Shown here piece after piece: positions 7,628-31,657 of a DNA stretch of 32,725 nucleotides. Both the position numbers and the translations under genes were made by a program. The DNA comes from an uncultured Myxococcales bacterium. GTDB taxonomy: Bacteria; Myxococcota_A; UBA9042. Position 1 is the first letter of the stretch; every line of letters starts with the position of its first letter. The stretch is from positions 1-32,725 of the forward strand of contig CAIPXZ010000503.1 of NCBI GenBank assembly GCA_903869075.1. Direction: 5' to 3'. The notes beneath the pieces were generated by a model. The model was not told where the DNA came from. It did no database searches and saw nothing but the letters and a program-made list of their open reading frames with translations.

Positions 7628-8704
7628 ATGCCGAGAGCGGCGCGCAACCATCTGTATTTCCTGCTAGTTCTCGCGGGCTGTAGCGCGCCGACAACGACAA
7701 GCTTGGACGCCGCGGCGGCTGATGACGCGCCCGCGCCGGACGTCAGCCTCGTGGATGCGCCAGCCGAAGTCACGGCGGATGCGGCGGCGGACGCAGCGGC
7801 AGACGTGAGCGCGAGCGGCTGTCTTGCCGGCGCGATGCAGATTCTGGAGGGCGATGCCGTGGTGCCGCAGACGCTGGTGCACCTGACGTGCGATGCCGTC
7901 CACCCCGCCAGCGTGACGCAGTGCACCTGGACGCTGCTGATGCAGCCGCTGGGTTCGGCGGCGCAGGTCCAGCCCGCTGGCAACGTCAACCAGTTTACGC
8001 TGGCGCCGAACGTCGCGGGCACGTACACGCTGTGCCCGACGGCGCACTACTCGGACGGCGCGCAACACTGCGCGCTGGCTTGTGAAACCGTGATCGTGCT
8101 GCCCGACAAGGCCATCCACGCGGAGCTGACGTGGGACACGCCCGGCGCGGCGACGGCGACCGATGCGGATCCGTGCAAATCGGCACAGCCACAGCTGCAT
8201 TTTGCCCATCCGTACGCCGACGACGGCGTGGACGAAGACTGCGACGGCCAGCCGGATCCGTGGTTCGACGCCAAGTACGACTGCTACAGCCAAAACTGCA
8301 GCGCGGGCAAGGTGTTGGACTGGGGCTCGCCGGACCCGAACGTCGACGACAACCCGGACCTGAACGCTTTTGACGGCGGGCCGGACAACCTCGACCTGAT
8401 GCTGCCCGAGGACGGCAAGACCTACCGGCTGGGCGTCGTCAACCCGGCCAGCTGCGGCCCGACGACGGCGACGCTGCGGGTCTACGTGTACGGCGCGCTG
8501 CAGTTTGAGGACACGGACACCTTGCAGCCGCTCGATCTGTGGAACGTCGGCACGGCGGAATGGCCAGACGCCTCATTGGACGGCTGCAACGCCGGCAACC
8601 TCTGCAAGCCCGGCAGCGGCAAGGGCAAGTGCGTCACGCCGTGCTACAAGCCCCCGCCGGGATTGAGCATTCCCGGCGAGTGGACAAGCGCCGTCTGCCC
8701 GTAA
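7628..8704 (+). CDS. lipoprotein with single MopE-like motif, partner of the giant lipoprotein
   Basis: The 358-aa protein starts one base after the stop of the giant gene, so the two are surely co-transcribed. MPRAARNHLYFLLVLAGC is a lipoprotein signal with the lipidated Cys at residue 18. An Asp/Ala-rich stalk follows at about 20-60. A segment at about 70-155 has an Ig/PKD-like feel (ending GTYTLCPTAHYSDG). The C-terminal domain begins with a HAELTWDTPG stretch. It includes one DDGVDEDCDGQPD motif and ends with a beta-rich part (GPTTATLRVYVYGALQFE). I recognise this overall pattern from myxobacterial and bradymonad-type surface proteins, but I cannot name a family. It meets lipA tail to tail with two bases between the stops. 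A surface role next to the giant lipoprotein is inferred from operon position and the shared motif. Confidence 0.75.
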   Translation: MPRAARNHLYFLLVLAGCSAPTTTSLDAAAADDAPAPDVSLVDAPAEVTADAAADAAADVSASGCLAGAMQILEGDAVVPQTLVHLTCDAVHPASVTQCTWTLLMQPLGSAAQVQPAGNVNQFTLAPNVAGTYTLCPTAHYSDGAQHCALACETVIVLPDKAIHAELTWDTPGAATATDADPCKSAQPQLHFAHPYADDGVDEDCDGQPDPWFDAKYDCYSQNCSAGKVLDWGSPDPNVDDNPDLNAFDGGPDNLDLMLPEDGKTYRLGVVNPASCGPTTATLRVYVYGALQFEDTDTLQPLDLWNVGTAEWPDASLDGCNAGNLCKPGSGKGKCVTPCYKPPPGLSIPGEWTSAVCP

Positions 8705-21829: not shown

Positions 21830-22024
21830 ATGAAGCACGAAACGACGGGGCACGATGTGGGGCGCGAACGGACGGCGCCGACGGTTGCCCGCAAGCCGTA
21901 TGAACGGCCGGAGATCGAGACGCTGGGCGGCACGCTGGCCGTGCTCTTGGCCTCGGGCTGTCTGGACATCAACTGCACGATCTGCCTGCCGGGCAATCCC
22001 GGCAACGGCAATGATCTGACGTGA
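21830..22024 (+). CDS. putative RiPP precursor peptide
   Basis: This 64-aa reading frame starts at the ATG at 21830, six bases after a GGGGG ribosome binding site. The track's longer 97-aa version overlaps the end of the giant gene and is less likely. Residues 22-33 read KPYERPEIETLG. The Y-x-x-P-x-I-x-x-x-G spacing matches the leader motif that PqqD-like recognition proteins bind in lasso-peptide systems. The C-terminal part (SGCLDINCTICLPGN...) has Cys at 44, 49 and 52 and a Gly/Asn/Pro tail. A Gly-Gly at 33-34 and a hydrophobic TLAVLLA stretch lie between leader and core. The stop overlaps the next gene by GTGA. Size, motif, Cys-rich core and position before a kinase, a radical SAM/SPASM enzyme and a peptidase make it the natural substrate. 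Its product is not known to me. Confidence 0.78.
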   Translation: MKHETTGHDVGRERTAPTVARKPYERPEIETLGGTLAVLLASGCLDINCTICLPGNPGNGNDLT

Positions 22025-22863
22025 CACCAGACCGCGTTCCCGGCGCGCGGGCGCACACCTGGGCGGCGCGGTTTGGCGATCTTGCCTTCGCCGTCGACGC
22101 GCCTGACAGCTTGGGGACGATTCGCAAGCCCTGGTACGGTTCGCCTGGTCTGGCGCCGGCGCTGACGATGACCGCGCGCCGAACTTCCGCGCCTTTTGGC
22201 GACGAAATCGCCCGTTTTCACCGTCTGGATGCGACCGGCTTCGCCTTTCAGGCGCCGTCGTGCCACGGCGAGGGCGATTGGCCCACCGCCAGCGGCGAGC
22301 TCCACCTGCATGACGCCACGCGCGACCGGCGGCAGCGCGTGACGATGTTGCACGAGTCGCTGTTCGCGGCGTGCTACGCGTGGTTGCTGCCGCGCGGCGG
22401 GCTGCTGCTGCACGCGGCGACGCTGTGGCTCGGTGGCCGCGCATTTGTCGTGGCGGGGCCGTCGACCGCGGGCAAGTCGACGCTGGCCGAGCGCTTTGCG
22501 CCCAACTGGTGGAGCGACGAGCACGCCTTCTTGCAGCGCGACGGCGATGCCTGGTTTGTCATGCGCCATGCCGAGTTCCGCGCCAACCAGGGTCCGTTCC
22601 CGTGGCGCGTACCGCTGGCCGGCCTGCTGTGGCTGGGTCCGGAGCGCACACAGTCCCGGCTGACGCCGTTGACGGTCGGCACGGCCTTGCCGCGCATCCT
22701 GCCGCAAGCGCTCGTCGCGGGGCCAGTGACCTCGGGACCGGTGTTGGACGCCGTCGCGCAGCTGAGCCGCCTCGTCCCGGTGGCCGAGCTGAGCCATTGC
22801 CTCGCGACGCCGCTGCCACAACTCGCCGCAATCATTGCCGGAGTCGCCGATGCCGCAGCCTGA
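22021..22863 (+). CDS. HprK-like serine kinase of a RiPP cluster
   Basis: The 280-aa protein starts at a GTG overlapping the precursor stop (GTGA), so translation is probably coupled. It has the HPr kinase C-terminal-like pattern: GLLLHAATLWLGGR, then a P-loop GPSTAGKST (146-154), then WWSDEHAFL with the acidic pair D166/E167 that would hold magnesium. The first 125 residues are not recognisable. True HPr kinases regulate sugar uptake with the PTS. Proteins of this shorter, divergent type lie in many RiPP clusters beside PqqD-like proteins, where their targets are usually unproven. Here the precursor has Thr and a few Ser residues, so phosphorylation of the peptide or a partner is possible but not shown. 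It overlaps the radical SAM gene by 14 bases. Confidence 0.8.
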   Translation: MTPDRVPGARAHTWAARFGDLAFAVDAPDSLGTIRKPWYGSPGLAPALTMTARRTSAPFGDEIARFHRLDATGFAFQAPSCHGEGDWPTASGELHLHDATRDRRQRVTMLHESLFAACYAWLLPRGGLLLHAATLWLGGRAFVVAGPSTAGKSTLAERFAPNWWSDEHAFLQRDGDAWFVMRHAEFRANQGPFPWRVPLAGLLWLGPERTQSRLTPLTVGTALPRILPQALVAGPVTSGPVLDAVAQLSRLVPVAELSHCLATPLPQLAAIIAGVADAAA

Positions 22864-24031
22864 GGACACAGCGCCGTACCACGCGTTCGTCGCCTCGCTG
22901 CGCGCCGCGTGGATCAAGGAAAATCGCCCGCTGGAGGCGCACCTCGACATCACGTACCGGTGCGATCTGGACTGCCAGCACTGCTACCTGGACAACCGCA
23001 CCAACTGGCCGGAGATGACGACGGCAGAATGGCTGAATGTTTTGGAGCAGTTGCAAGCCGCCGGCGTCATGTTCCTGGTGTGGAGCGGCGGCGACGTGAT
23101 CATGCGCAGCGACTTTGGCACGCTGCTCGACCGCGCTGCGGCGCTGGGCCTGATGAGCCGCGTCAAGACCCACGGCGGCCAACTGACCGCCGAGTGGGCG
23201 CAGCGCTTCGCCCGCGACAAGGTCGGCCGCGTCGACATCAGCGTCTACAGCCTGCGACCGGAGATCCACGACCGGTTGACTCGCCGGCCGGGGTCGCTGG
23301 TCAACACCCTGCGCGGCATCGCCGCGGCGCGCGAGGCCGGCATACCGGTCAAGATTTCCTGCTACGTGCAGCCGAGCACGATCAGCGAAATCGGCGAAAT
23401 TTGTCGCTATTTTGAGGACATGGGCTGCAAGATCGTCTTCAACACCAACACCGTGCTGGACCACTCGGCCTCGGAGACGCTGGCGTACCTGCAGCTGACG
23501 GACGACGACCTCGTGCGCGCGCGGGTGGAGATTTTGCGCGCCCAGCCCAGCGGTTTGCCCAAACGATTGAGTGAGCTGCCTTCGCACGCGCCGTGCGCGG
23601 CCGGGCGGACCGCGTTGTACATCAGCCCGGACGGCGAGCTGTGGCCGTGCGTCAATTTCCCGATGGCGCTTGGCAACTTGCGCGAAAAGCCGCTGCTGGC
23701 GATCTGGCGTGAGTCCACAGCGCGCGCGAGCCTCGTGGCCTGGGACAACGACCAGCGCACCGGCTGCCACAGCTGCGCCGGCAGCGGCATGTGCTTCTAC
23801 TGCCCCGGCGATGCCTTCAAAAAGACAGGCGATTTTCGCCTGGCGCCGGCGACCTTCCACGCCGCCACCCGCGCCAAGATGCGCGCGTGGGAAATCGTCC
23901 AAGGCGACACCTTCAGCGCCGACGACTGGCAGAGCGTGCCGGCGGAGGAAGCAAAGCCATTGACCCGCAAGAACTTTCATTTTCCGATTCACCGCGCCAA
24001 GCGCGGCAGCGGCAAGCGCGTCGGCCCGTGA
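22850..24031 (+). CDS. radical SAM/SPASM peptide-modifying enzyme
   Basis: The start is the ATG at 22850 (MPQPEDTAPY..., 393 aa), six bases after a GGAG ribosome binding site and inside the end of the kinase gene. The ATG at 22835 is less well placed. The radical SAM cluster is CDLDCQHC (C38, C42, C45), with SGGD (79-82) as the SAM-binding GGE-like motif. The C-terminal SPASM domain has C249, C267 and then C306-x2-C309-x5-C315-x2-C318, enough ligands for auxiliary 4Fe-4S clusters. SPASM enzymes such as AlbA, PqqE and MftC make thioether or carbon-carbon links or oxidise peptide residues. With a three-Cys core next door, a thioether (sactipeptide- or ranthipeptide-like) bond is a reasonable inference. 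The C-terminus is basic (HRAKRGSGKRVGP). The stop overlaps the next start by GTGA. Confidence 0.92.
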   Translation: MPQPEDTAPYHAFVASLRAAWIKENRPLEAHLDITYRCDLDCQHCYLDNRTNWPEMTTAEWLNVLEQLQAAGVMFLVWSGGDVIMRSDFGTLLDRAAALGLMSRVKTHGGQLTAEWAQRFARDKVGRVDISVYSLRPEIHDRLTRRPGSLVNTLRGIAAAREAGIPVKISCYVQPSTISEIGEICRYFEDMGCKIVFNTNTVLDHSASETLAYLQLTDDDLVRARVEILRAQPSGLPKRLSELPSHAPCAAGRTALYISPDGELWPCVNFPMALGNLREKPLLAIWRESTARASLVAWDNDQRTGCHSCAGSGMCFYCPGDAFKKTGDFRLAPATFHAATRAKMRAWEIVQGDTFSADDWQSVPAEEAKPLTRKNFHFPIHRAKRGSGKRVGP

Positions 24032-24435
24032 CGACGCTTGTGTGGCACGACGTGCGCGGCCGCTCGATGTGGCCGCTGGAAGCGCCGCTGCAAGCGGGTG
24101 TCGCAGTCGTGGCGACGAACGATCTGCAACCCGGCGATATCGTGGCGTTTATCGCCGGCCATGCGCCGGTGCTGTGGGTGCATCGCGTCGTGCGGGTGGA
24201 GTTTGACGCGGTCATTACCCGTGGCGATACCAACGGCTATGACGACCCGCCGGTGCCGTTTTCGGCGATCCTCGGGCGCGTCGCGGCGGTGCGCTGGGGG
24301 CCGTGGACGCTGCCACTGGCGGATCGCGGGCCGTTGGCGCGGTGGCAGCGGCGCGCAGGTCAGGCGTGGGCGCAGTTGGCGCCGGGACTGCGGCGGCGGT
24401 TCGCGCGGCAAAAAACCCGCGGTTCGGGCACATGA
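24028..24435 (+). CDS. small soluble S26-like peptidase, likely leader protease
   Basis: The 135-aa protein begins at a GTG that overlaps the radical SAM stop by four bases. It carries the signal-peptidase pattern in miniature: GRSMWPLEAPLQAG with the catalytic Ser (S13), then LQPGDIVAF, then VLWVHRVVRV, then ITRGDTNGYDD. In bacterial signal peptidase I the general base is Lys. Here the equivalent position appears to be the His of VHRVV, as in the SipW/Sec11 type. There is no membrane segment, so it should be cytosolic rather than a true signal peptidase. A basic tail (RRRFARQKTRG) ends the protein. S24/S26-like proteins of this size occur in PqqD/radical SAM clusters and are candidates for leader removal. 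The fold call is good and the substrate is inferred. Confidence 0.78.
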   Translation: MTTLVWHDVRGRSMWPLEAPLQAGVAVVATNDLQPGDIVAFIAGHAPVLWVHRVVRVEFDAVITRGDTNGYDDPPVPFSAILGRVAAVRWGPWTLPLADRGPLARWQRRAGQAWAQLAPGLRRRFARQKTRGSGT

Positions 24436-24441
24436 CGATCC

Positions 24442-24469
24442 TTGACAGAAGCAAACGCCACGGTACTGT
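24442..24469 (+). promoter_or_regulatory. sigma70-type promoter candidate for the CpoB-like gene
   Basis: TTGACA (perfect -35), a 16-base spacer and TACTGT (three of six to TATAAT) lie right after the S26-like stop. The TTG that the ORF track takes as start codon is the first triplet of this -35 box, which argues for a downstream translation start. Confidence 0.4.
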
Positions 24470-24522
24470 GGCCGAAGCGTGCGTCCGCGGCGGCGCGATT
24501 GGGTGCATCGTTGAAATCGACA

Positions 24523-25449
24523 GTGACTTCAAGCCATTTCAGCCACGTATCCACAGCCTTGATTCCGTTGGCGTTTCGTGTCGGCGCGCCGCTGTTGTTG
24601 ACGATAATGCCGGCGTGCGGCAACGATCAGCTGCTGCAGCTGCGGCACGAGGCGACCGCGATGCGCGAGGAGCTGACCGAGCTCAAGCGCAGCCAGACGG
24701 CGTCGCGTATCCAGTTTGAAGAATTACGCAATCGGCTGATCCTGATCGAGGACAAAACGGACTCCGAGAGGGTCGCGCGGGCGCGGCGCGATGAATGGAT
24801 TCCGCGGCTGCCGACTGTGAAAGTGGGCGAATCCGACGCGCACGTGGACGCGCGCGATCGCGTGGGGCTGCCGTCGGCGCTCCCCAAGATGGACGCACCG
24901 GGCAAGGACGCGCGCACGGCGAGCCAGTTGAATTCGCAGACGATTCGCCTGACGCACGACGATCCGTTGCCGGGCGAGACCACCGACGAACCCGTGGAAG
25001 TGTCCGGACCGGCAGATGAGGCGCCGCCCCAGGCGAGCGGCACCAAGGCCAAGCTGGATCCGACGGCGTCGCTGTATGAAAAAGGCAAGTCCCTGTTTGA
25101 TCAGGGACAAATCACCGAATCGCGGCGGGTTTTTGAGACGCTGCACCGCCAATACCCGCGCCACGATCTGGCGGACAACGCGCTGTACTGGATTGGCGAA
25201 GGCTATTACGCGCAGGCGCAGTGGCTGACGTCGGCGCAGGCGTTCCTGCGGGTCGCCAAGGAGTACCCGCGTGGCAACAAAGTACCGGACGCGATGCTGA
25301 AAATGGCGCTGTGCTACCGCAAGCTGGGCGACGACCACGGCGCGGACGACGTGCTCAAGCAGCTGACGCGGCTGTACCCGGGCACGGAAGCGGCGGACAA
25401 GGCGACGGCGATGAAGAAAGCGACGACGGACGGCGCAGTGCAGCCCTAA
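24523..25449 (+). CDS. CpoB/YbgF-like TPR lipoprotein
   Basis: The C-terminal 120 residues are TPR repeats of the YbgF/CpoB type: SLYEKGKSLFDQGQ, RRVFETLHRQYPRHDLADNALYWIGEGYYAQ, AQAFLRVAKEYPRGNKVPDAMLKMALCYRKLG and VLKQLTRLYPGTEAADKA. The N-terminal part has a lipobox (LTIMPAC) followed by a coiled coil (QLLQLRHEATAMREELTELKRSQ), which is the usual CpoB order. CpoB links the Tol-Pal system to peptidoglycan synthesis during division; many homologues are soluble periplasmic, but this one looks lipidated. I use the GTG at 24523 because the TTG at 24442 would give a 58-residue signal and overlaps a -35-like box. TTG codons at 24559 and 24568 are alternatives. No tolA, tolB or pal is adjacent; instead a LysM protein follows after 36 bases. 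Confidence 0.78.
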   Translation: MTSSHFSHVSTALIPLAFRVGAPLLLTIMPACGNDQLLQLRHEATAMREELTELKRSQTASRIQFEELRNRLILIEDKTDSERVARARRDEWIPRLPTVKVGESDAHVDARDRVGLPSALPKMDAPGKDARTASQLNSQTIRLTHDDPLPGETTDEPVEVSGPADEAPPQASGTKAKLDPTASLYEKGKSLFDQGQITESRRVFETLHRQYPRHDLADNALYWIGEGYYAQAQWLTSAQAFLRVAKEYPRGNKVPDAMLKMALCYRKLGDDHGADDVLKQLTRLYPGTEAADKATAMKKATTDGAVQP

Positions 25450-25485
25450 CCGGCGGCGCGAAGTGTGGCCGCAAGTGGAGCGAGA

Positions 25486-26649
25486 ATGACGGGCAAGTTC
25501 GCCAAATTCTTCAAGACATTCATGCCGCTGGCGGTCATCTTGGCAGCCGTGACCGCGCAGGCGCAGGAGATGCCGGATCGCGCGGCGCCGACGATCGCCG
25601 TGCAGCAGTCGGCGGCGAGCGGCGAGCGGACGTACGTGGTGGAAGCCGGCGACACGCTGTGGAGCATCGCCGAAGGCCTGTACGATGAGCCGTGGTACTG
25701 GCCGTCGCTTTGGTCGTACAACCCGCAAATCACCAATCCGCACTTGATCTACCCCGGCGACGTCATCTACCTGAGCCGCAAAAATGCCCAGAGCCAGGCG
25801 GAAAAGACAATCTCATTCGCCACTTCGCGCTACGAGCCCAAGCCCAAGAGCGGCATCGAGCTTGTGCGGCGCGTCGGCTACATCTCCTCGCGCGATTATC
25901 GCGAGTCCGGCGTGCTGGAGGCGAGCCGCGAAGAACGCAATATGCTCGGGCAGTTGGACGAGGGCTATGTGCGCTTCAACACGCGCCGCTGCGCCGAGGA
26001 CGACAAAGCCAAGGCCGAACGCGACGCCTTTCGCGCCAACGAAGACGGCGACACCAAGCGCGATGAAAAGAAGTCCGACGAGGACGAGGATGAAGCGCTC
26101 GTCGGTCCGTGCGTCCGCGACGGCGACCGCTACACGCTGTACCGCGTCGAGAGCGAGATCATCCACCCGGTAACCGGCAAGCGCGTTGGCTACAAAATCA
26201 ACTTCTTGGGCGACGCCAAGGTGCTGAGCACGGTGCGGCCGCTGGTCAGCGTTCTCATCACGCGCTCGCACAGCGAGATCAGCCGCGGCGACTTGCTGAC
26301 CAACGTCTTTGAGCCGCTGCAGCTTGTGACGCCGACGCCGAATAAGGTGCAAGTGGCCGGCGTAATTGTGGATTTCCATCACGAGACGAGCGCCGCGGGC
26401 GCCTTCAGCTACGTCTACATCGACAAGGGCGCTGACGACGGCGTCGAGAAGGGCAACCGGTTTGAGATCGTCTGGCGCGGCGACGGTCTGGCGCGTGGCA
26501 ACGTCTCGAATCTGAAAGACTATCCCGATGAGCAGATCGGCGTTGCGCTCGTCGTTGAAGCGTACGATCGCCACAGTCTGGCGCTGCTGACCTCGACCGT
26601 GCGGGAGCTCGAGCGCGGGATGCCGGCGATCATGGCCAAGGGTTTCTGA
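25486..26649 (+). CDS. exported LysM-domain envelope protein
   Basis: The start is the ATG at 25486 with GGAG five bases upstream; the track start seven codons earlier lacks this. The 387-aa protein has a Sec signal (MTGKFAKFFKTFMPLAVILAAVTAQAQ). One LysM domain spans about 49-96 (YVVEAGDTLWSIAEGLYDEP... to PGDVIYL), which binds peptidoglycan glycan strands. An acidic, charged linker (KRDEKKSDEDEDE) lies near 195-205. The C-terminal half is beta-rich with a segment (VAGVIVDFHHETSAAGAFSYVYIDKG) resembling a type often seen behind LysM in deltaproteobacterial proteins. Two Cys (about C168 and C209) flank the acidic linker. Together with the CpoB-like gene upstream it suggests an envelope or division role. 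Confidence 0.82.
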   Translation: MTGKFAKFFKTFMPLAVILAAVTAQAQEMPDRAAPTIAVQQSAASGERTYVVEAGDTLWSIAEGLYDEPWYWPSLWSYNPQITNPHLIYPGDVIYLSRKNAQSQAEKTISFATSRYEPKPKSGIELVRRVGYISSRDYRESGVLEASREERNMLGQLDEGYVRFNTRRCAEDDKAKAERDAFRANEDGDTKRDEKKSDEDEDEALVGPCVRDGDRYTLYRVESEIIHPVTGKRVGYKINFLGDAKVLSTVRPLVSVLITRSHSEISRGDLLTNVFEPLQLVTPTPNKVQVAGVIVDFHHETSAAGAFSYVYIDKGADDGVEKGNRFEIVWRGDGLARGNVSNLKDYPDEQIGVALVVEAYDRHSLALLTSTVRELERGMPAIMAKGF

Positions 26650-26765: not shown

Positions 26766-28658
26766 ATGTACCTGGAATGGCTCGACAACGACGGCGAGTT
26801 GGCGCGGCACCCGCTGGATCCGGCGATGGAGGCGGTGACGATTGGCCGCGGCGCGGCGTCGACCATCTATTCCAAGGAAACATCGGTTTCGCGCAACCAC
26901 GCCCGCATTGGCTGGGAGCCTTCCGGCTATTATATCAAAGACTTGGGGTCATCGAACGGCTCGTTCATCAACGGTGAGCGCGTCCAGCGCGGCACGTTGC
27001 GCGAGGGCGACGTCGCGCGCTGTGGCGAGGTGCTGGAGATCCGGATCTGCGCCGGCGCGCCGCCGGACGCCAAGAAGAAGACGCTGCAGATCGCTGAATC
27101 GGGCCTGCAACGTCAAGTGCAGCCGACCGCGCCGGCGACGGGCCAGGATCGCGAGGCGCTGGTGGCGGCGGCGCGCGCGGCGCGGCTGGGGCAGAGTCCT
27201 GCGGGCATGCGCACCGATGCGCGGCCGGTCGAGCGGGCGGCGCCGCCGGTGCCCCCGCGACCGCAGCCGACGGCGGACCCGCGCGGCAGTGCCCCGCGGC
27301 CGGATCCGCGGGTGTTGACGCCTCCGCCGGTGGCCGAGCCGACTTTTCGCGCGCCCGCGGTGGGGCCGACGCCGGACGCGCAGCGGCGGATCGCCCAGTT
27401 GGAGGACCAGCTGGCGGCAGTGCGGACGGCGCTGGCCAAGGCCGAGAACGACGCCAAGGCCGTCGAGGCGCGCTCGATGCGCTACAGCGTGGAGCTGGAC
27501 GGGCTGAGCGACAAGTACGTCAAGCTCAAGGAACACAACCAGATTCTCGGCCAGGAGCTGGACAAGACCCGCAGCGAGCTGCGCAGCCGCGAGGACGAGG
27601 CGTTTGAGGCAGGCCGCGCGGTCGAGGAGCTGAAGACGCAAATCGGCCAGGCGCGCGAAAAAGCCGCGGACGCGACCGAGCAGCTGTCCGGCCTCAAGGT
27701 GCGGATCACGCAAAAAGACCGGCAGATTGAGGAGCTGCAGCGGCAGCTGGACCTGCTCGAGTACGAGCTGCGTGCGGCGCGGGACGAGAACGACAGCCTG
27801 CAGTCGAGCTTCAACCGCGAAGGCGGCGACCTCAGCCGGCTGGAGCGCAAGATCAACTTGCTGCAGGAAGTGATCCAGGAAAAGGAAGCGCTGATCGAGC
27901 AATTGCGCATCGATCTCCGCGACAAGGACACGGAGATCCGCCAGGTGCGTATGGGCGTCGGCATCTCGGATCTGGAGCACGAAAAGCGCCGGCTGCTGGA
28001 GGATTACCACCTGGCGACGCGGCGCGTGGACGAACTGAACGACCGGCTGCTGCAGCAGACGCGGCAGACCGAGGCGCTGAAGACCGAGGTGGACGCCGCG
28101 CGCGAGGCGTTGGAGCGCAAGCCCGCGGCGATCGCCGACGTGACGGAGCATCCGGACTTCAAGGCGAAGCTGCGCGAGGTCGAGCGTGCGCGCGATGAGG
28201 TGAGCCAGCTGCAGCGCGATTTGGCGAAGTCCGACCTGAAGCTGGAAGCGGCGACGGCGGATGCCAGCCAGCACAAAGCGGCGCTGGCGGAGCTGCAGGC
28301 GGCGCACAAGCGCGCGGAAGTGCTGGAACAAAAGCTGCTGGACACCGAGGCGCGGCTGAACGACGCGCTGACGACGCCGAAGACTGCCGCCCTGCCCGAC
28401 AATTTGGCGGACGGCATCGAGAGCCTGCTGGACGCGGCGGTGGCGGCGCGCTCCAACGCGGCGGTGGTGCGGCGCTATGCCGGCGACCTGCAGGCGGAGC
28501 GCGCCAAGTGGCCGGAGCTGGCGGATACGCTGGAGCTTGTGAACGATATCGCGAGCGTGCTGGCGAACGATCTCGCTGAACAGGCGCGGTCGATCGAGGT
28601 GCTGCACCGGCAGGTGCTGGCCGCGAGCCCGCAGCCGCCGGAAGGAAAATCCGTATGA
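26766..28658 (+). CDS. FHA-domain protein with long coiled coil
   Basis: The 630-aa protein has an N-terminal FHA domain (about 22-97) with the phosphothreonine-binding features IGRG (26-29), SVSRNHARI (40-48) and GSSNGSFING (61-70). A Pro/Arg/Ala-rich linker follows at about 110-200. The next 330 residues are charged heptad-type sequence predicted to form a long coiled coil (for example QIEELQRQLDLLEYELRAARDE). The last about 90 residues form a less charged helical cap. FHA domains read phosphothreonine, so a Ser/Thr kinase partner is expected elsewhere in the genome. The gene overlaps the AAA+ gene by ATGA, so the two proteins probably act together, perhaps as scaffold and motor. No membrane segment or export signal is seen. 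Confidence 0.85.
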   Translation: MYLEWLDNDGELARHPLDPAMEAVTIGRGAASTIYSKETSVSRNHARIGWEPSGYYIKDLGSSNGSFINGERVQRGTLREGDVARCGEVLEIRICAGAPPDAKKKTLQIAESGLQRQVQPTAPATGQDREALVAAARAARLGQSPAGMRTDARPVERAAPPVPPRPQPTADPRGSAPRPDPRVLTPPPVAEPTFRAPAVGPTPDAQRRIAQLEDQLAAVRTALAKAENDAKAVEARSMRYSVELDGLSDKYVKLKEHNQILGQELDKTRSELRSREDEAFEAGRAVEELKTQIGQAREKAADATEQLSGLKVRITQKDRQIEELQRQLDLLEYELRAARDENDSLQSSFNREGGDLSRLERKINLLQEVIQEKEALIEQLRIDLRDKDTEIRQVRMGVGISDLEHEKRRLLEDYHLATRRVDELNDRLLQQTRQTEALKTEVDAAREALERKPAAIADVTEHPDFKAKLREVERARDEVSQLQRDLAKSDLKLEAATADASQHKAALAELQAAHKRAEVLEQKLLDTEARLNDALTTPKTAALPDNLADGIESLLDAAVAARSNAAVVRRYAGDLQAERAKWPELADTLELVNDIASVLANDLAEQARSIEVLHRQVLAASPQPPEGKSV

Positions 28659-30307
28659 GCCAGTCGCCCGTCGCTGAAGCCGTGGCGCAGTCGCCGCATC
28701 GCCCCGTGCCGGCGGCGGTGGATGAGCTGCACTACCTGATCCGCGCGCAGTACAAGCTGCTGTACGTCGTCTCCGCCGAGGAGGAGCGCGTGGAGCGCTG
28801 GCTGGGCGAGCTGGCGACGCTGGAGAGCACGCCGCTGCGGGAGCGTTGGGACGTGACGGCGTGGCAGGCGCGGCAGCTGATTCACTGGTCGTGCTCGCAG
28901 GGCTTCCGCTGCGCGTCCATGGACGTGCCCGGCGACGTGCGCGACCCGATCCGCGCGCTGGACTGGATCGCCAACAACCTGCAGCGCGACGCCATCGTGG
29001 TGCTGCGCGATTTCCATCCGTTTTTGAACGATCCGATGGTGGCGCGCCGCGTGCGCGACCTGCCGCACCTGTTCGCCGACGGCACCGCCAAGCGCTCGGT
29101 GGTTTTCCTCAGCCCGATCGTCAAGATCCCGGCGGAGATGGAAAAAGACCTCGTCGTCGTCGATTTTGACCTGCCGGATCGCCAGACCCTGGAGGACATC
29201 GTCCGCGATCAGGCGTTCGCCGGTGCGGCGTCGGCGCGTTTTGGCAAGAATTTCCGCAAGGTGCTGGAGAGTCCGGAGCTGCAGCGCGAGATCGCCGAGG
29301 CGGCGCTGGGCTTGACCGAGCAGGAAGCGCGGCAGGTGTTCCAAAAAACCAGCGTGCGCGACAAGGGCTTTCACCTGCCGACGATTTTGCAGGAAAAAAA
29401 GCACATCATCCGCAAGTCAGGAATTCTCGAGTTTTACGAGACGACGCTGGGCATGGAGTCCGTCGGCGGTCTGCAGCTGATGAAGGACTGGCTGAACAAG
29501 CGGCGCCACGCGTTCTCGCCGGCGGCGCAGGCGTTCGGCCTGCCGGCGCCCAAGGGCATCCTGCTGCTGGGCGTGCCGGGCTGCGGCAAGTCCTTGTCTG
29601 CCAAAGCGATTTCCCAGGCCTGGCAGATGCCGCTGCTGCGGCTGGACGTCGGCAAGGTGTTCGGCTCGCTCGTCGGCTCGTCGGAAGAGAACATGCGCAA
29701 GGCCATCAAGACCGCGGAAGCCGTGGCGCCGGCGATTTTGTGGCTCGATGAGCTGGAAAAAGGCTTCTCCGGCACCAAGTCGTCGGGGCAGTCCGACGGC
29801 GGCACGACGGCGCGCGTCTTCGCGACGTTCCTGACGTGGCTGCAGGAAAAGTCCTCGCCCGTGTTCGTGATCGCCACGGCCAATGACGTGAGCCAGCTGC
29901 CGCCGGAGCTGTTGCGCAAGGGCCGGTTTGACGAAATTTTCTTTGTCGACCTGCCGAACAAGGCGGAACGCGAGGAGATTTTGCGGATCCAGCTGAAAAA
30001 GCGCCGCCGCGACGGCGCGACATTTGACATGAAGCGCCTTGTCGATGCGACGGCGGGCTTCTCGGGTTCGGAACTCGAGGAAGCGGTCGTCGGCGCGCTG
30101 TACGACACTTTTGACGTGAGCCAAGGCCAGGCGGACATCCACACGGACGAGCTCGTGGCGGCGTGCCGCGAGGTGATTCCGCTGAGCCAGACGATGCGCG
30201 AGCGGCTGGCGGAGATGCGCGAGTGGTCCAAGTCGCGGGCGCGGCGGGCGTCGCCACCCGATGACGCGCCGCCGGGTGCGGAACAGGCGCCGCGGCTGGA
30301 GATGTGA
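28655..30307 (+). CDS. Ycf46-like AAA+ ATPase
   Basis: The 550-aa protein has an N-terminal domain (about 20-180; YLIRAQYKLLYVVSAEE...VVLRDFHPFL) with the features of a degenerate nucleotide-binding fold. The C-terminal AAA+ domain has Walker A GVPGCGKS (306-313), Walker B ILWLDELEK (361-369), sensor 1 in VIATAN (405-410) and an arginine-finger-type RKGRFDE (421-427). The Ser in SVIGS-like positions and the order of domains match the Ycf46 family of plastids and cyanobacteria, whose molecular job is not settled. A GGAAGGA ribosome binding site precedes the ATG, which overlaps the FHA stop by ATGA. The next gene encodes a DUF1257 (Ycf35-like) protein, which strengthens the assignment. The ATPase call is firm; substrate and process are unknown. 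Confidence 0.9.
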   Translation: MSQSPVAEAVAQSPHRPVPAAVDELHYLIRAQYKLLYVVSAEEERVERWLGELATLESTPLRERWDVTAWQARQLIHWSCSQGFRCASMDVPGDVRDPIRALDWIANNLQRDAIVVLRDFHPFLNDPMVARRVRDLPHLFADGTAKRSVVFLSPIVKIPAEMEKDLVVVDFDLPDRQTLEDIVRDQAFAGAASARFGKNFRKVLESPELQREIAEAALGLTEQEARQVFQKTSVRDKGFHLPTILQEKKHIIRKSGILEFYETTLGMESVGGLQLMKDWLNKRRHAFSPAAQAFGLPAPKGILLLGVPGCGKSLSAKAISQAWQMPLLRLDVGKVFGSLVGSSEENMRKAIKTAEAVAPAILWLDELEKGFSGTKSSGQSDGGTTARVFATFLTWLQEKSSPVFVIATANDVSQLPPELLRKGRFDEIFFVDLPNKAEREEILRIQLKKRRRDGATFDMKRLVDATAGFSGSELEEAVVGALYDTFDVSQGQADIHTDELVAACREVIPLSQTMRERLAEMREWSKSRARRASPPDDAPPGAEQAPRLEM

Positions 30308-30319
30308 CGGGAGGGCCAG

Positions 30320-30730
30320 ATGTCGCATTTCACAACGGTGCAGACCAAGATTACCGACCTCGTCCGCCTTGAAAAAGTGCTGACGGAGCTGAAGTTCAAC
30401 TTCACCAAGGCTGAACTCGGCCAAGTGGTTCAGGTCAAAGGCTATTTGGGTCAAAAGACCGACGCCCAGCTTGTCATCCACGCCTCGAAAACCTACGAGA
30501 TTGGCGTGAACGTCGACGCCAAGACCGGCGCCGTCAACTTCGTCGCCGACTGGGAATTCGTTGAAACAACGGCCGGTTATAGCCAAGACGAGTTCACCCG
30601 CAAGGTCATGCAGCGCTACGCCTACCACACCGTCAAGGACGAAGTGACAAAGCGCGGCTACACGCTGGAGGAAGAAACCGTGGATGGTCAAGGCCATATC
30701 CACGTCAAAGTCTCGTCGTGGGGGGACTGA
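30320..30730 (+). CDS. DUF1257 (Ycf35-like) protein
   Basis: The 136-aa protein starts MSHFTTVQTKITDLVRLEKVL and ends with a HVKVSSWGD segment. It contains YGVNVDA-like strands (YEIGVNVDAKTGAVNFVADWE) and a Tyr-rich helix (MQRYAYHTVKDEVTKRGYT). This full-length pattern is that of DUF1257, the Ycf35 family of cyanobacteria and algal plastids, whose function is unknown. GGGAGG lies five bases before the ATG. The gap to the AAA+ gene is 12 bases and to the DUF2997 gene three bases. I expect a cytosolic partner or regulator of the AAA+ ATPase because the two families co-occur, which is inference. Confidence 0.88.
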   Translation: MSHFTTVQTKITDLVRLEKVLTELKFNFTKAELGQVVQVKGYLGQKTDAQLVIHASKTYEIGVNVDAKTGAVNFVADWEFVETTAGYSQDEFTRKVMQRYAYHTVKDEVTKRGYTLEEETVDGQGHIHVKVSSWGD

Positions 30731-30733
30731 AGC

Positions 30734-30937
30734 ATGGCACAGCGGCGCGAAATCCAGTTTACGATCGACGACAACGGCGAAGTGTCGATCCAGGTCGTCG
30801 GCGTCAAAGGTGCCGAGTGCGAGCGGCTGACGCGCGAGATGGAGGCGGCGCTCGGCATCGTGCAGAGCCGTCAGCACACGAGTGAGTACTGGCAAACTGC
30901 TGAAACGACGACGAAAATCGATCAGGGTGACGGCTAG
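30734..30937 (+). CDS. DUF2997 small protein
   Basis: The 67-aa protein MAQRREIQFTIDDNGEVSIQVVGVKGAECERLT... has the short beta-hairpin followed by a helix (CERLTREMEAALG) typical of DUF2997. This family often neighbours DUF1257 in cyanobacteria. A GGGGG run upstream can serve as ribosome binding site. The single Cys is in the conserved GxxC position. The function is unknown. It is co-transcribed with its neighbours, and the next start codon follows its stop directly. Confidence 0.85.
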   Translation: MAQRREIQFTIDDNGEVSIQVVGVKGAECERLTREMEAALGIVQSRQHTSEYWQTAETTTKIDQGDG

Positions 30938-31657
30938 ATGCCGCAGACCCGCGGCCGCGACATGCTGGCGCAGCCCCGCGCCTGGCCGCTCGCGCGCGCG
31001 ATCGCCCAACGCCAGCGGTTTTCGCGCGCCCACCTGCCGCTGGACACCCGGCAGCGGCGCATCGACCGCTTCTGCGTGTTTACCGCCCACGACTTCCAGC
31101 CCGATCGGCTGGGCGCGTGGCTGGAGACACACGCGACGTTCAAGGAGACGTATGCCCGCGGATTCCGTGTGAAATCCGACAACGAGATCCCCGGCGACGT
31201 GCTGGAGGCGATCCAGCACGAGCACATGCCGCAGTTCAACCTGCGCAACATCGGCCGCGCCGAGCGCGACGTGGAGCTGGATGATCCGCTGCCGCTGGAG
31301 CGCCAGCGCGGGCTGGGCGGGCAGCTGGGCGCGGAACTGGACGAAGTGCGCGCGGCGCACGTGCCCAAGCCGCAGCTGGCGGAGGTGTGGTCGGTGCGAC
31401 TGATGGGCCGCGTGCGCGGTAGCTTTCGGCGAATTCTCTTGGAAGATCCGTGGGAAGCGCGGCTCGGCCCGGACGCGACATCGGGTCACGACGGCCGCAG
31501 CTACCAGTTCGTCGCCGAGGGCACGCACCCGCACGACTTGCCGGACGCCTGGTGGGGTCCGCAGCCGGTGCCGCTGGCCGAGCACCACGTCGCCGCGCCG
31601 CCAGGCGAAGAAGACACGGGCGACGTGATGGCGATGATGCGCGAGCTGACGCGGTAG
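30938..31657 (+). CDS. protein of unknown function, last gene of the FHA/AAA operon
   Basis: The ATG follows the DUF2997 stop with no gap, and AGGGTGA within the previous gene is a plausible ribosome binding site. The 239-aa protein is not one I recognise. It is rich in Arg, Leu and Pro, has no signal peptide or membrane segment, and has only one Cys. The middle (residues 45-80) looks globular, with FCVFTAHDFQPDRLGAWLE and FKETYARGFRV. The C-terminus is acidic and Trp/His-rich (WWGPQPVPLAEHHV) and ends in a short helix, DVMAMMRELTR. It could be a specific partner of the AAA+ module. After it comes a 126-base gap. Confidence 0.7.
   Translation: MPQTRGRDMLAQPRAWPLARAIAQRQRFSRAHLPLDTRQRRIDRFCVFTAHDFQPDRLGAWLETHATFKETYARGFRVKSDNEIPGDVLEAIQHEHMPQFNLRNIGRAERDVELDDPLPLERQRGLGGQLGAELDEVRAAHVPKPQLAEVWSVRLMGRVRGSFRRILLEDPWEARLGPDATSGHDGRSYQFVAEGTHPHDLPDAWWGPQPVPLAEHHVAAPPGEEDTGDVMAMMRELTR

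What the first reader, a model, noticed from the sequence alone, without database searches (positions are those of the whole stretch)
26766..31657. FHA, Ycf46-like AAA+, DUF1257, DUF2997 and an unknown protein form one operon
Ycf46, Ycf35 (DUF1257) and DUF2997 are best known from cyanobacteria and plastids, yet this genome shows no sign of photosynthesis here. Joining them to an FHA coiled-coil scaffold and a new 239-aa protein suggests a phosphorylation-tuned ATPase machine with a general role not tied to photosynthesis. Spacings are -4, 12, 3 and 0 bases.
Basis: partly seen in the sequence, partly recalled or inferred. Interest (0 to 1): 0.78.

Follow-up and report, generated by a model that had tools for sequence, protein, structure and literature searches.

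The report
Injection-machine ATPase operon with phosphopeptide sensor
Five neighbouring genes in an uncultured myxobacterium-like bacterium, including relatives of proteins known mainly from cyanobacteria and plastids, turn out to be an accessory motor-and-sensor set that travels with phage-tail-like contractile injection machines, which gives several orphan protein families a testable job.

Summary
Five co-directional genes lie at 26766-31657: FHA/coiled coil, Ycf46-like AAA+, DUF1257, DUF2997 and a 239-aa protein, with spacings -4, 12, 3 and 0. The 239-aa protein is a real, unnamed family (invariant QxxLRN motif). FHA-AAA-DUF1257-DUF2997 is conserved across several Myxococcota families.

The module is tied to contractile injection systems (CIS). 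Of 44 Myxococcota genomes with the CIS-type module, 43 carry a CIS sheath, against 47% of the sample. In one myxobacterium a complete CIS cluster runs without strand change into FHA-FHA-FHA-FHA/coiled coil-AAA-DUF1257-DUF2997. In Bdellovibrionota AAA-DUF1257-DUF2997 sits between the CIS tube and baseplate genes. In Planctomycetota and Spirochaetota parts of the module lie beside CIS genes. The window's genome has the matching cap and sheath genes on another contig.

Best explanation: a phosphothreonine-read, AAA+-driven module that assembles, loads or recycles the CIS, analogous to but not homologous with the T6SS Fha/ClpV pair. CIS linkage is shown by genomics; the mechanism is inferred. AAA-DUF1257-DUF2997 triads also occur on plasmids without CIS, so the core biochemistry is not CIS-exclusive. 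I found no earlier report of this link.

The parts
26766..28658 (+). FHA-domain protein with long coiled coil, 630 aa; proposed phosphothreonine-reading scaffold
   Evidence: Pfam FHA 2.4e-16 at residues 24-83; G27, R28, R43, H45, N64, G65 conserved in at least 85% of 33 homologues; FHA genes directly upstream of the AAA in 51 of 60 loci with room
28655..30307 (+). Ycf46-like AAA+ ATPase, 550 aa: N-terminal region of about 265 aa without a Pfam match, one AAA domain at 302-432
   Evidence: Pfam AAA 9.7e-30; Walker A GxxGxGKS, Walker B DE, sensor-1 N and LLRKGRFDE invariant or nearly so in 38 homologues; full-length match to phrog_8638, 1.2e-137
30320..30730 (+). DUF1257 (Ycf35-like) protein, 136 aa
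   Evidence: Pfam PF06868 7.2e-19; confident AlphaFold2 model, pLDDT 91, pTM 0.80, no significant PDB fold match
30734..30937 (+). DUF2997 protein, 67 aa
   Evidence: Pfam PF11211 8.5e-17; directly downstream of DUF1257 in 76 of 79 loci with room
30938..31657 (+). 239-aa protein of an unnamed family, invariant QxxLRN motif and W172; proposed lineage-specific adaptor
   Evidence: no Pfam, NCBIfam, PADLOC or PHROGs match; same slot in 48 of 72 loci; invariant columns; third-position substitution bias; low-confidence model, pLDDT 60

Best explanation
The operon is the detached accessory module of a phage-tail-like contractile injection system (CIS). Shown by comparative genomics: the module and one CIS subtype (short Pvc16_N cap, a sheath of about 400 aa plus one of about 600 aa, FHA proteins at the 3' end) occur together, and in several lineages the module lies inside or beside the CIS cluster. 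Inferred: the FHA/coiled-coil protein binds a threonine-phosphorylated CIS or envelope component and recruits the Ycf46-like AAA+ ATPase. The ATPase, with DUF1257 and DUF2997 (and in many Myxococcota the 239-aa protein) as adaptors, remodels CIS proteins during assembly, effector loading or recycling of spent sheath. Phosphorylation would thereby gate when the machine is built or fired. This would work like the T6SS threonine-phosphorylation pathway (PpkA/PppA/Fha with ClpV) and like the eCIS ATPase Pvc15, but with unrelated or distantly related parts. The confidence given is for CIS linkage; for the specific phospho-gated ATPase mechanism it is about 0.35.
For: Co-occurrence in 189 Myxococcota genomes: DUF1257 48, Pvc16_N 77, both 43 (Fisher 5e-16); with sheath 46 of 48 (1e-16). 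Without four genomes with odd copies, 43 of 44 have a sheath and 40 of 44 Pvc16_N. In family f2 the 3 genomes without DUF1257 lack both CIS markers and the 7 with it have both. All 17 further DUF1257 genomes from four phyla have a sheath. Fused cluster on one 51,058-base contig (G189:C352, L208+L133): Pvc16-sheath-tube-sheath-tube-hub-GPD-gp25-BaseplateJ-Tail_P2_I/PASTA-L133:179 protein-FHA-FHA/vWA-FHA-FHA/coiled coil-AAA-DUF1257-DUF2997. Bdellovibrionota: sheath-tube-AAA-DUF1257-DUF2997-GPD-gp25-baseplate in G203 and G425, linked again in G446. Planctomycetota: divergent cap and sheath beside the AAA; DUF1257 in 8 of 10 genomes with two sheath hits. Spirochaetales: DUF1257 inside CIS clusters; Treponema succinifaciens plasmid AAA, 53% identical, flanked by VgrG/Pvc8 and gpV genes, with DUF2997 beside another gpV. 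The window's genome carries cap and sheath at G000:C307. The family's CIS cluster itself ends in FHA and FHA/vWA genes. Catalytic and FHA residues conserved.
Against: In the window's family the operon is not next to the CIS cluster: another contig here, 188 kb away in G016. AAA-DUF1257-DUF2997 triads without CIS occur on plasmids of Paenibacillus, cyanobacteria and Manganitrophus. Phages with a related AAA include Mycobacterium and Pseudomonas phages. Cyanobacteria carry DUF1257, reported for Prochlorococcus as well (PMC4284462), so the core biochemistry is not CIS-specific. No kinase or PP2C gene lies in the operon. Co-occurrence within a phylum is partly shared ancestry; Fisher tests ignore it. 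Seven of 17 DUF1257 Planctomycetota lack a sheath. No experiment tests the mechanism.
Confidence: 0.8

Rival explanations
1. The operon is a general protein- or redox-homeostasis module, as Ycf46/Ycf35/DUF2997 may be in cyanobacteria, and its association with CIS is phylogenetic hitchhiking plus occasional gene proximity.
For: Triads without CIS on plasmids, some with a 4Fe-4S protein; cyanobacterial cluster DUF2997-ycf35-fed7 (PMC4284462); Ycf46 reported in CO2-use regulation (Jiang 2015, cited in PMC12172450).
Against: Physical linkage to CIS genes in four phyla, including embedding between tube and baseplate genes; concordant presence and absence within family f2. The divergent Myxococcota copies L063, L070 and L072 group with the non-CIS plasmid copies; L070's genome has no CIS, though those of L063 and L072 carry other CIS.
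Confidence: 0.13
2. A narrower version of the best explanation: the Ycf46-like AAA is the CIS ATPase of this subtype and replaces the canonical winged-helix Cis15/Pvc15 ATPase as effector loader.
For: WHD-AAA (PF22977) lies within 30 kb of a sheath in 17 of 42 module-lacking CIS genomes but 1 of 42 module-bearing ones (p 2e-5). No AAA in the fetched G045 CIS cluster. Pvc15 likewise has one working ATPase domain and loads payload (PMC11495950).
Against: Both ATPases occur in the same cluster in G189 and G203; WHD-AAA genes exist elsewhere in most module-bearing genomes; match lists were truncated and MAGs are fragmented; phylogeny not controlled.
Confidence: 0.3
3. The operon is an anti-phage defence system built on an IetA-like AAA ATPase.
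For: PADLOC IetA profiles match the AAA domain (8.9e-24); one plasmid triad lies near RloB and zeta-toxin genes.
Against: The PADLOC match covers only the AAA core and is far weaker than the full-length match to phrog_8638; no nuclease or protease partner; the operon is vertically conserved with CIS rather than island-like.
Confidence: 0.03

Closest known systems
Type VI secretion threonine-phosphorylation pathway (PpkA, PppA, Fha) with ClpV
   Same: FHA scaffold plus AAA+ ATPase serving a contractile nanomachine; Fha1 is needed for ClpV1 foci in Pseudomonas (PMC5995506)
   Different: The AAA is a single classical AAA domain, not a ClpB-type double ring; no kinase or phosphatase in the operon; the CIS genes are eCIS-like, not T6SS
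eCIS ATPase Pvc15/Cis15
   Same: AAA+ ATPase encoded with an eCIS; one working ATPase domain
   Different: Pvc15 has an N domain and tandem AAA domains (PMC11495950); the window protein has no winged helix and one AAA domain, and both kinds coexist in G189 and G203
Cyanobacterial cluster DUF2997-ycf35(DUF1257)-fed7, and Ycf46
   Same: DUF1257 and DUF2997 as neighbours; AAA of Ycf46-like architecture
   Different: No ferredoxin here; FHA and the 239-aa protein absent there; the reported cyanobacterial cluster does not include the AAA
eCIS clusters of Myxococcota MAGs (PMC11937823)
   Same: Phage-tail-like cluster in Myxococcota, tube gene strongly transcribed, proposed role in predation
   Different: The passages read name no FHA, AAA, DUF1257 or DUF2997 module

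Membership tests
CIS accessory module | Genome also encodes CIS sheath and cap | tested here: met
   G000:C307 cap (Pvc16_N 6.3e-21) and sheath (4e-23); 43 of 44 CIS-type module genomes have a sheath
CIS accessory module | Physical linkage to CIS structural genes | tested here: inconclusive
   Met in Myxococcota G189 and L076, Bdellovibrionota, Planctomycetota, Spirochaetota; not met in the window's own contig or family
T6SS threonine-phosphorylation pathway | FHA protein with phosphothreonine-binding residues | tested here: met
   G27/R28, R43, H45, N64/G65 conserved
T6SS threonine-phosphorylation pathway | Ser/Thr kinase PpkA and PP2C phosphatase PppA in the same cluster | tested here: not met
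   None in the operon; PP2C only near some distant loci
T6SS threonine-phosphorylation pathway | ClpV-type (ClpB-like, two AAA domains) ATPase | tested here: not met
   Single classical AAA domain
Cis15/Pvc15 ATPase | N domain plus tandem AAA domains | tested here: not met
   No WHD (PF22977) and one AAA domain in P0002, against WHD plus AAA in two stretches in L133:8608-10755
Ycf46 | N-terminal domain without Walker A followed by one catalytically intact AAA domain | tested here: met
   full-length alignment at about 41% identity to AAA proteins of cyanobacterial plasmids
Ycf46 | Orthology with chromosomal or plastid Ycf46 | not testable with these tools
   No chromosomal cyanobacterial or plastid sequence was available as a named reference
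DUF1257 (Ycf35) | Pfam PF06868 over its cut-off | tested here: met
   68.4 bits against cut-off 22.2
DUF2997 | Pfam PF11211 over its cut-off | tested here: met
   61.2 bits against cut-off 24.1
Cyanobacterial fed7 cluster | 4Fe-4S ferredoxin in the cluster | tested here: not met
   None among the five genes or their flanks

The most novel reading that the evidence does not exclude
Ycf46-like AAA with DUF1257 and DUF2997 is a second class of CIS ATPase module, distinct from Cis15 and ClpV, placed under FHA/phosphothreonine control in Myxococcota. Its cyanobacterial and plastid relatives would then be remodelling ATPases for large protein assemblies rather than photosynthesis factors.
Probability: 0.35. 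Interest if true: 0.85.

Novelty: new variant of a known kind. Interest (0 to 1): 0.72.

Why it matters
Ycf46, Ycf35/DUF1257 and DUF2997 are widespread conserved proteins without a biochemical role. Tying them to contractile injection systems in four phyla gives a concrete setting in which to test them. It suggests that eCIS-like machines of predatory and environmental bacteria may have phosphorylation-gated ATPase control comparable to T6SS. It also adds an unnamed adaptor family (QxxLRN motif) and a marker for finding this CIS subtype in fragmented MAGs.

Tried and rejected
Chance ORF for the 239-aa gene: rejected. Photosynthesis link: no support found in the window. Fold-based hints: the 239-aa model was too poor to search; the DUF1257 model was confident but had no significant PDB match, and its one viral match is unnamed. 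Sequence search of PDB with the 239-aa and DUF1257 profiles: nothing significant. A 239-aa relative in Planctomycetota (L145:3847-4680, motif KPFHLWNVER): hhalign probability only 21%, left open. Simple replacement of Cis15: not upheld everywhere (G189 and G203 have both). Anti-phage defence: rejected as main reading. PP2C/kinase linkage as evidence for a phosphorylation pathway: PP2C clusters in 9 loci, but the background rate was not measured, so it is not used.

Full report
Observation. The window is contig C503 of a 6.27-Mb Myxococcota MAG (named relatives are mostly Myxococcota). Five plus-strand ORFs are at the stated coordinates with gaps of -4, 12, 3 and 0 bases. Pfam confirms FHA, AAA, DUF1257 and DUF2997; the 239-aa product matches nothing. 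Upstream on the same strand are a YbgF/CpoB-like TPR protein and a LysM protein; downstream is an APC-type permease.

Is it one unit? In 40 loci from Myxococcota genomes with DUF1257 the order recurs. The 239-aa ORF has homologues in the same slot with an invariant QxxLRN motif and a third-codon-position substitution bias. With named loci added, 80 distinct loci give AAA upstream in 70 of 74, DUF2997 downstream in 76 of 79, FHA upstream in 51 of 60, the 239-aa family downstream in 48 of 72, and all five in order in 33 of 54 with room. The 239-aa gene is the least conserved member.

Neighbour lists of distant loci showed a CIS sheath, tube and Pvc16_N in L076 and the Planctomycetota loci, and eCIS_core (DUF4157) directly after DUF2997 in Kofleriaceae-like loci. 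I then tested co-occurrence. In 189 Myxococcota genomes DUF1257 is in 48, Pvc16_N in 77, both in 43 (p 5e-16); a sheath is in 46 of the 48 (p 1e-16) although only 89 of 189 have one. Four genomes (G039, G134, G142, G185) have unusual copies; L063, L070 and L072 from three of them group with plasmid copies in the AAA tree. Without those four, 43 of 44 have a sheath. Fisher values ignore shared ancestry, so concordance within families matters: in family f2, 7 genomes have DUF1257, cap and sheath, and 3 have none of the three. In the window's own genus G021 lacks DUF1257 and cap but has sheath hits, so concordance there is not perfect.

Physical linkage. G189:C352 (51,058 bases, the length of L133's contig) carries one unidirectional cluster: Pvc16_N, sheath, tube, sheath, tube, hub, GPD, gp25, Baseplate_J, Tail_P2_I/PASTA, a 514-520-aa CIS-cluster protein, FHA, FHA/vWA, FHA, FHA/coiled coil, AAA, DUF1257, DUF2997 and a WHD-AAA. 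In the window's family the CIS cluster of G045 ends with the same 514-aa protein, FHA and FHA/vWA, then unrelated genes. The window operon therefore looks like the distal part of such a cluster, split off. In Bdellovibrionota G203 and G425 the triad lies between tube and GPD/gp25/baseplate genes; in G446 DUF1257 is 5.8 kb from a sheath. In Planctomycetota the triad faces a divergent cap-sheath operon; DUF1257 is in 8 of 10 genomes with two sheath hits and in 10 of 31 with any. Excluding the three genomes that led me there, 7 of 14 DUF1257 genomes have a sheath against 21 of 181 others (p 1e-3). In Spirochaetales DUF1257 sits in CIS clusters without a detected AAA, and the Treponema succinifaciens plasmid carries a 53%-identical AAA between VgrG/Pvc8 and gpV genes. 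All 17 DUF1257 genomes checked outside the first sample have a sheath. The window's genome has cap and sheath on C307.

What works and how. The AAA has invariant Walker A, Walker B (DE), sensor-1 N and LLRKGRFDE in 38 homologues, with one Pfam AAA domain after an N-terminal region of about 265 aa without a Pfam match. The FHA keeps the residues used for phosphothreonine binding (role from established knowledge of FHA domains). In T6SS, Fha scaffolds respond to threonine phosphorylation and are needed for ClpV foci (PMC5995506). In eCIS, Pvc15 loads payload using one working ATPase domain (PMC11495950). By analogy the FHA protein recruits the ATPase to the CIS. Whether the work done is assembly, effector loading or recycling is not resolved. 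WHD-AAA is near the sheath in 17 of 42 module-lacking but 1 of 42 module-bearing CIS genomes, which hints at replacement, but G189 and G203 have both.

Limits. Triads without CIS on plasmids, related AAA proteins in phages of Mycobacterium and Pseudomonas and DUF1257 in cyanophages show that the biochemistry is broader than CIS. The 239-aa model is poor. The DUF1257 model is good but has no significant PDB match. Gene calls in loci came from a simple codon-model script, checked by HMM or Pfam for key genes.

Known or new. Only three held papers mention DUF1257 or DUF2997, none of them a CIS paper by title and abstract. No held paper pairs a non-T6SS CIS with FHA as far as the titles and abstracts show. 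Myxococcota eCIS are described as strongly transcribed and possibly predatory (PMC11937823). The literature held is open-access only, so earlier reports cannot be excluded.

Noticed in passing
L077 (G079:C56:24000-40000), DUF1257 at 8115-8558 minus: Phage-like region carrying divergent DUF1257, DUF2997 and an AAA gene in a same-family genome.
   Followed up: no
L228 (Prochlorococcus phage P-SSM2, 147690-148070): T4-like cyanophages carry a DUF1257 homologue annotated as hypothetical, next to small unknown genes before gp43.
   Followed up: partly
L002 (G000:C196:9468-10052): A second, contig-end-truncated AAA fragment 43% identical to the window AAA lies elsewhere in the same genome.
   Followed up: no
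L219, L221, L222, L223, L224, L225, L226 (plasmids): AAA with DUF1257 and/or DUF2997 on plasmids of Bacillota, Actinomycetota, Nitrospirota and Cyanobacteriota, several with a 4Fe-4S single-cluster protein and no CIS genes in view.
   Followed up: partly
L066:8963-9622 and 12 similar Kofleriaceae-like loci: An eCIS_core (DUF4157) protein gene follows DUF2997 in loci that also carry several FHA genes upstream of the AAA.
   Followed up: partly
L145:3847-4680 and L147:3340-4167: Planctomycetota protein upstream of the AAA with motif KPFHLWNVER, possibly a remote relative of the 239-aa family.
   Followed up: partly
L191:6009-7550: A 514-aa protein family recurs between Tail_P2_I/PASTA and FHA genes in these CIS clusters; no Pfam match.
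   Followed up: partly
window 22021-24435: HprK-related protein, radical SAM/SPASM protein and a signal-peptidase-like ORF in a row, reminiscent of a SynChlorMet-type peptide-modification cassette.
   Followed up: no
window 24442-26649: YbgF/CpoB-like TPR and LysM genes sit just upstream of the operon and keep that place in much of the window's family.
   Followed up: partly
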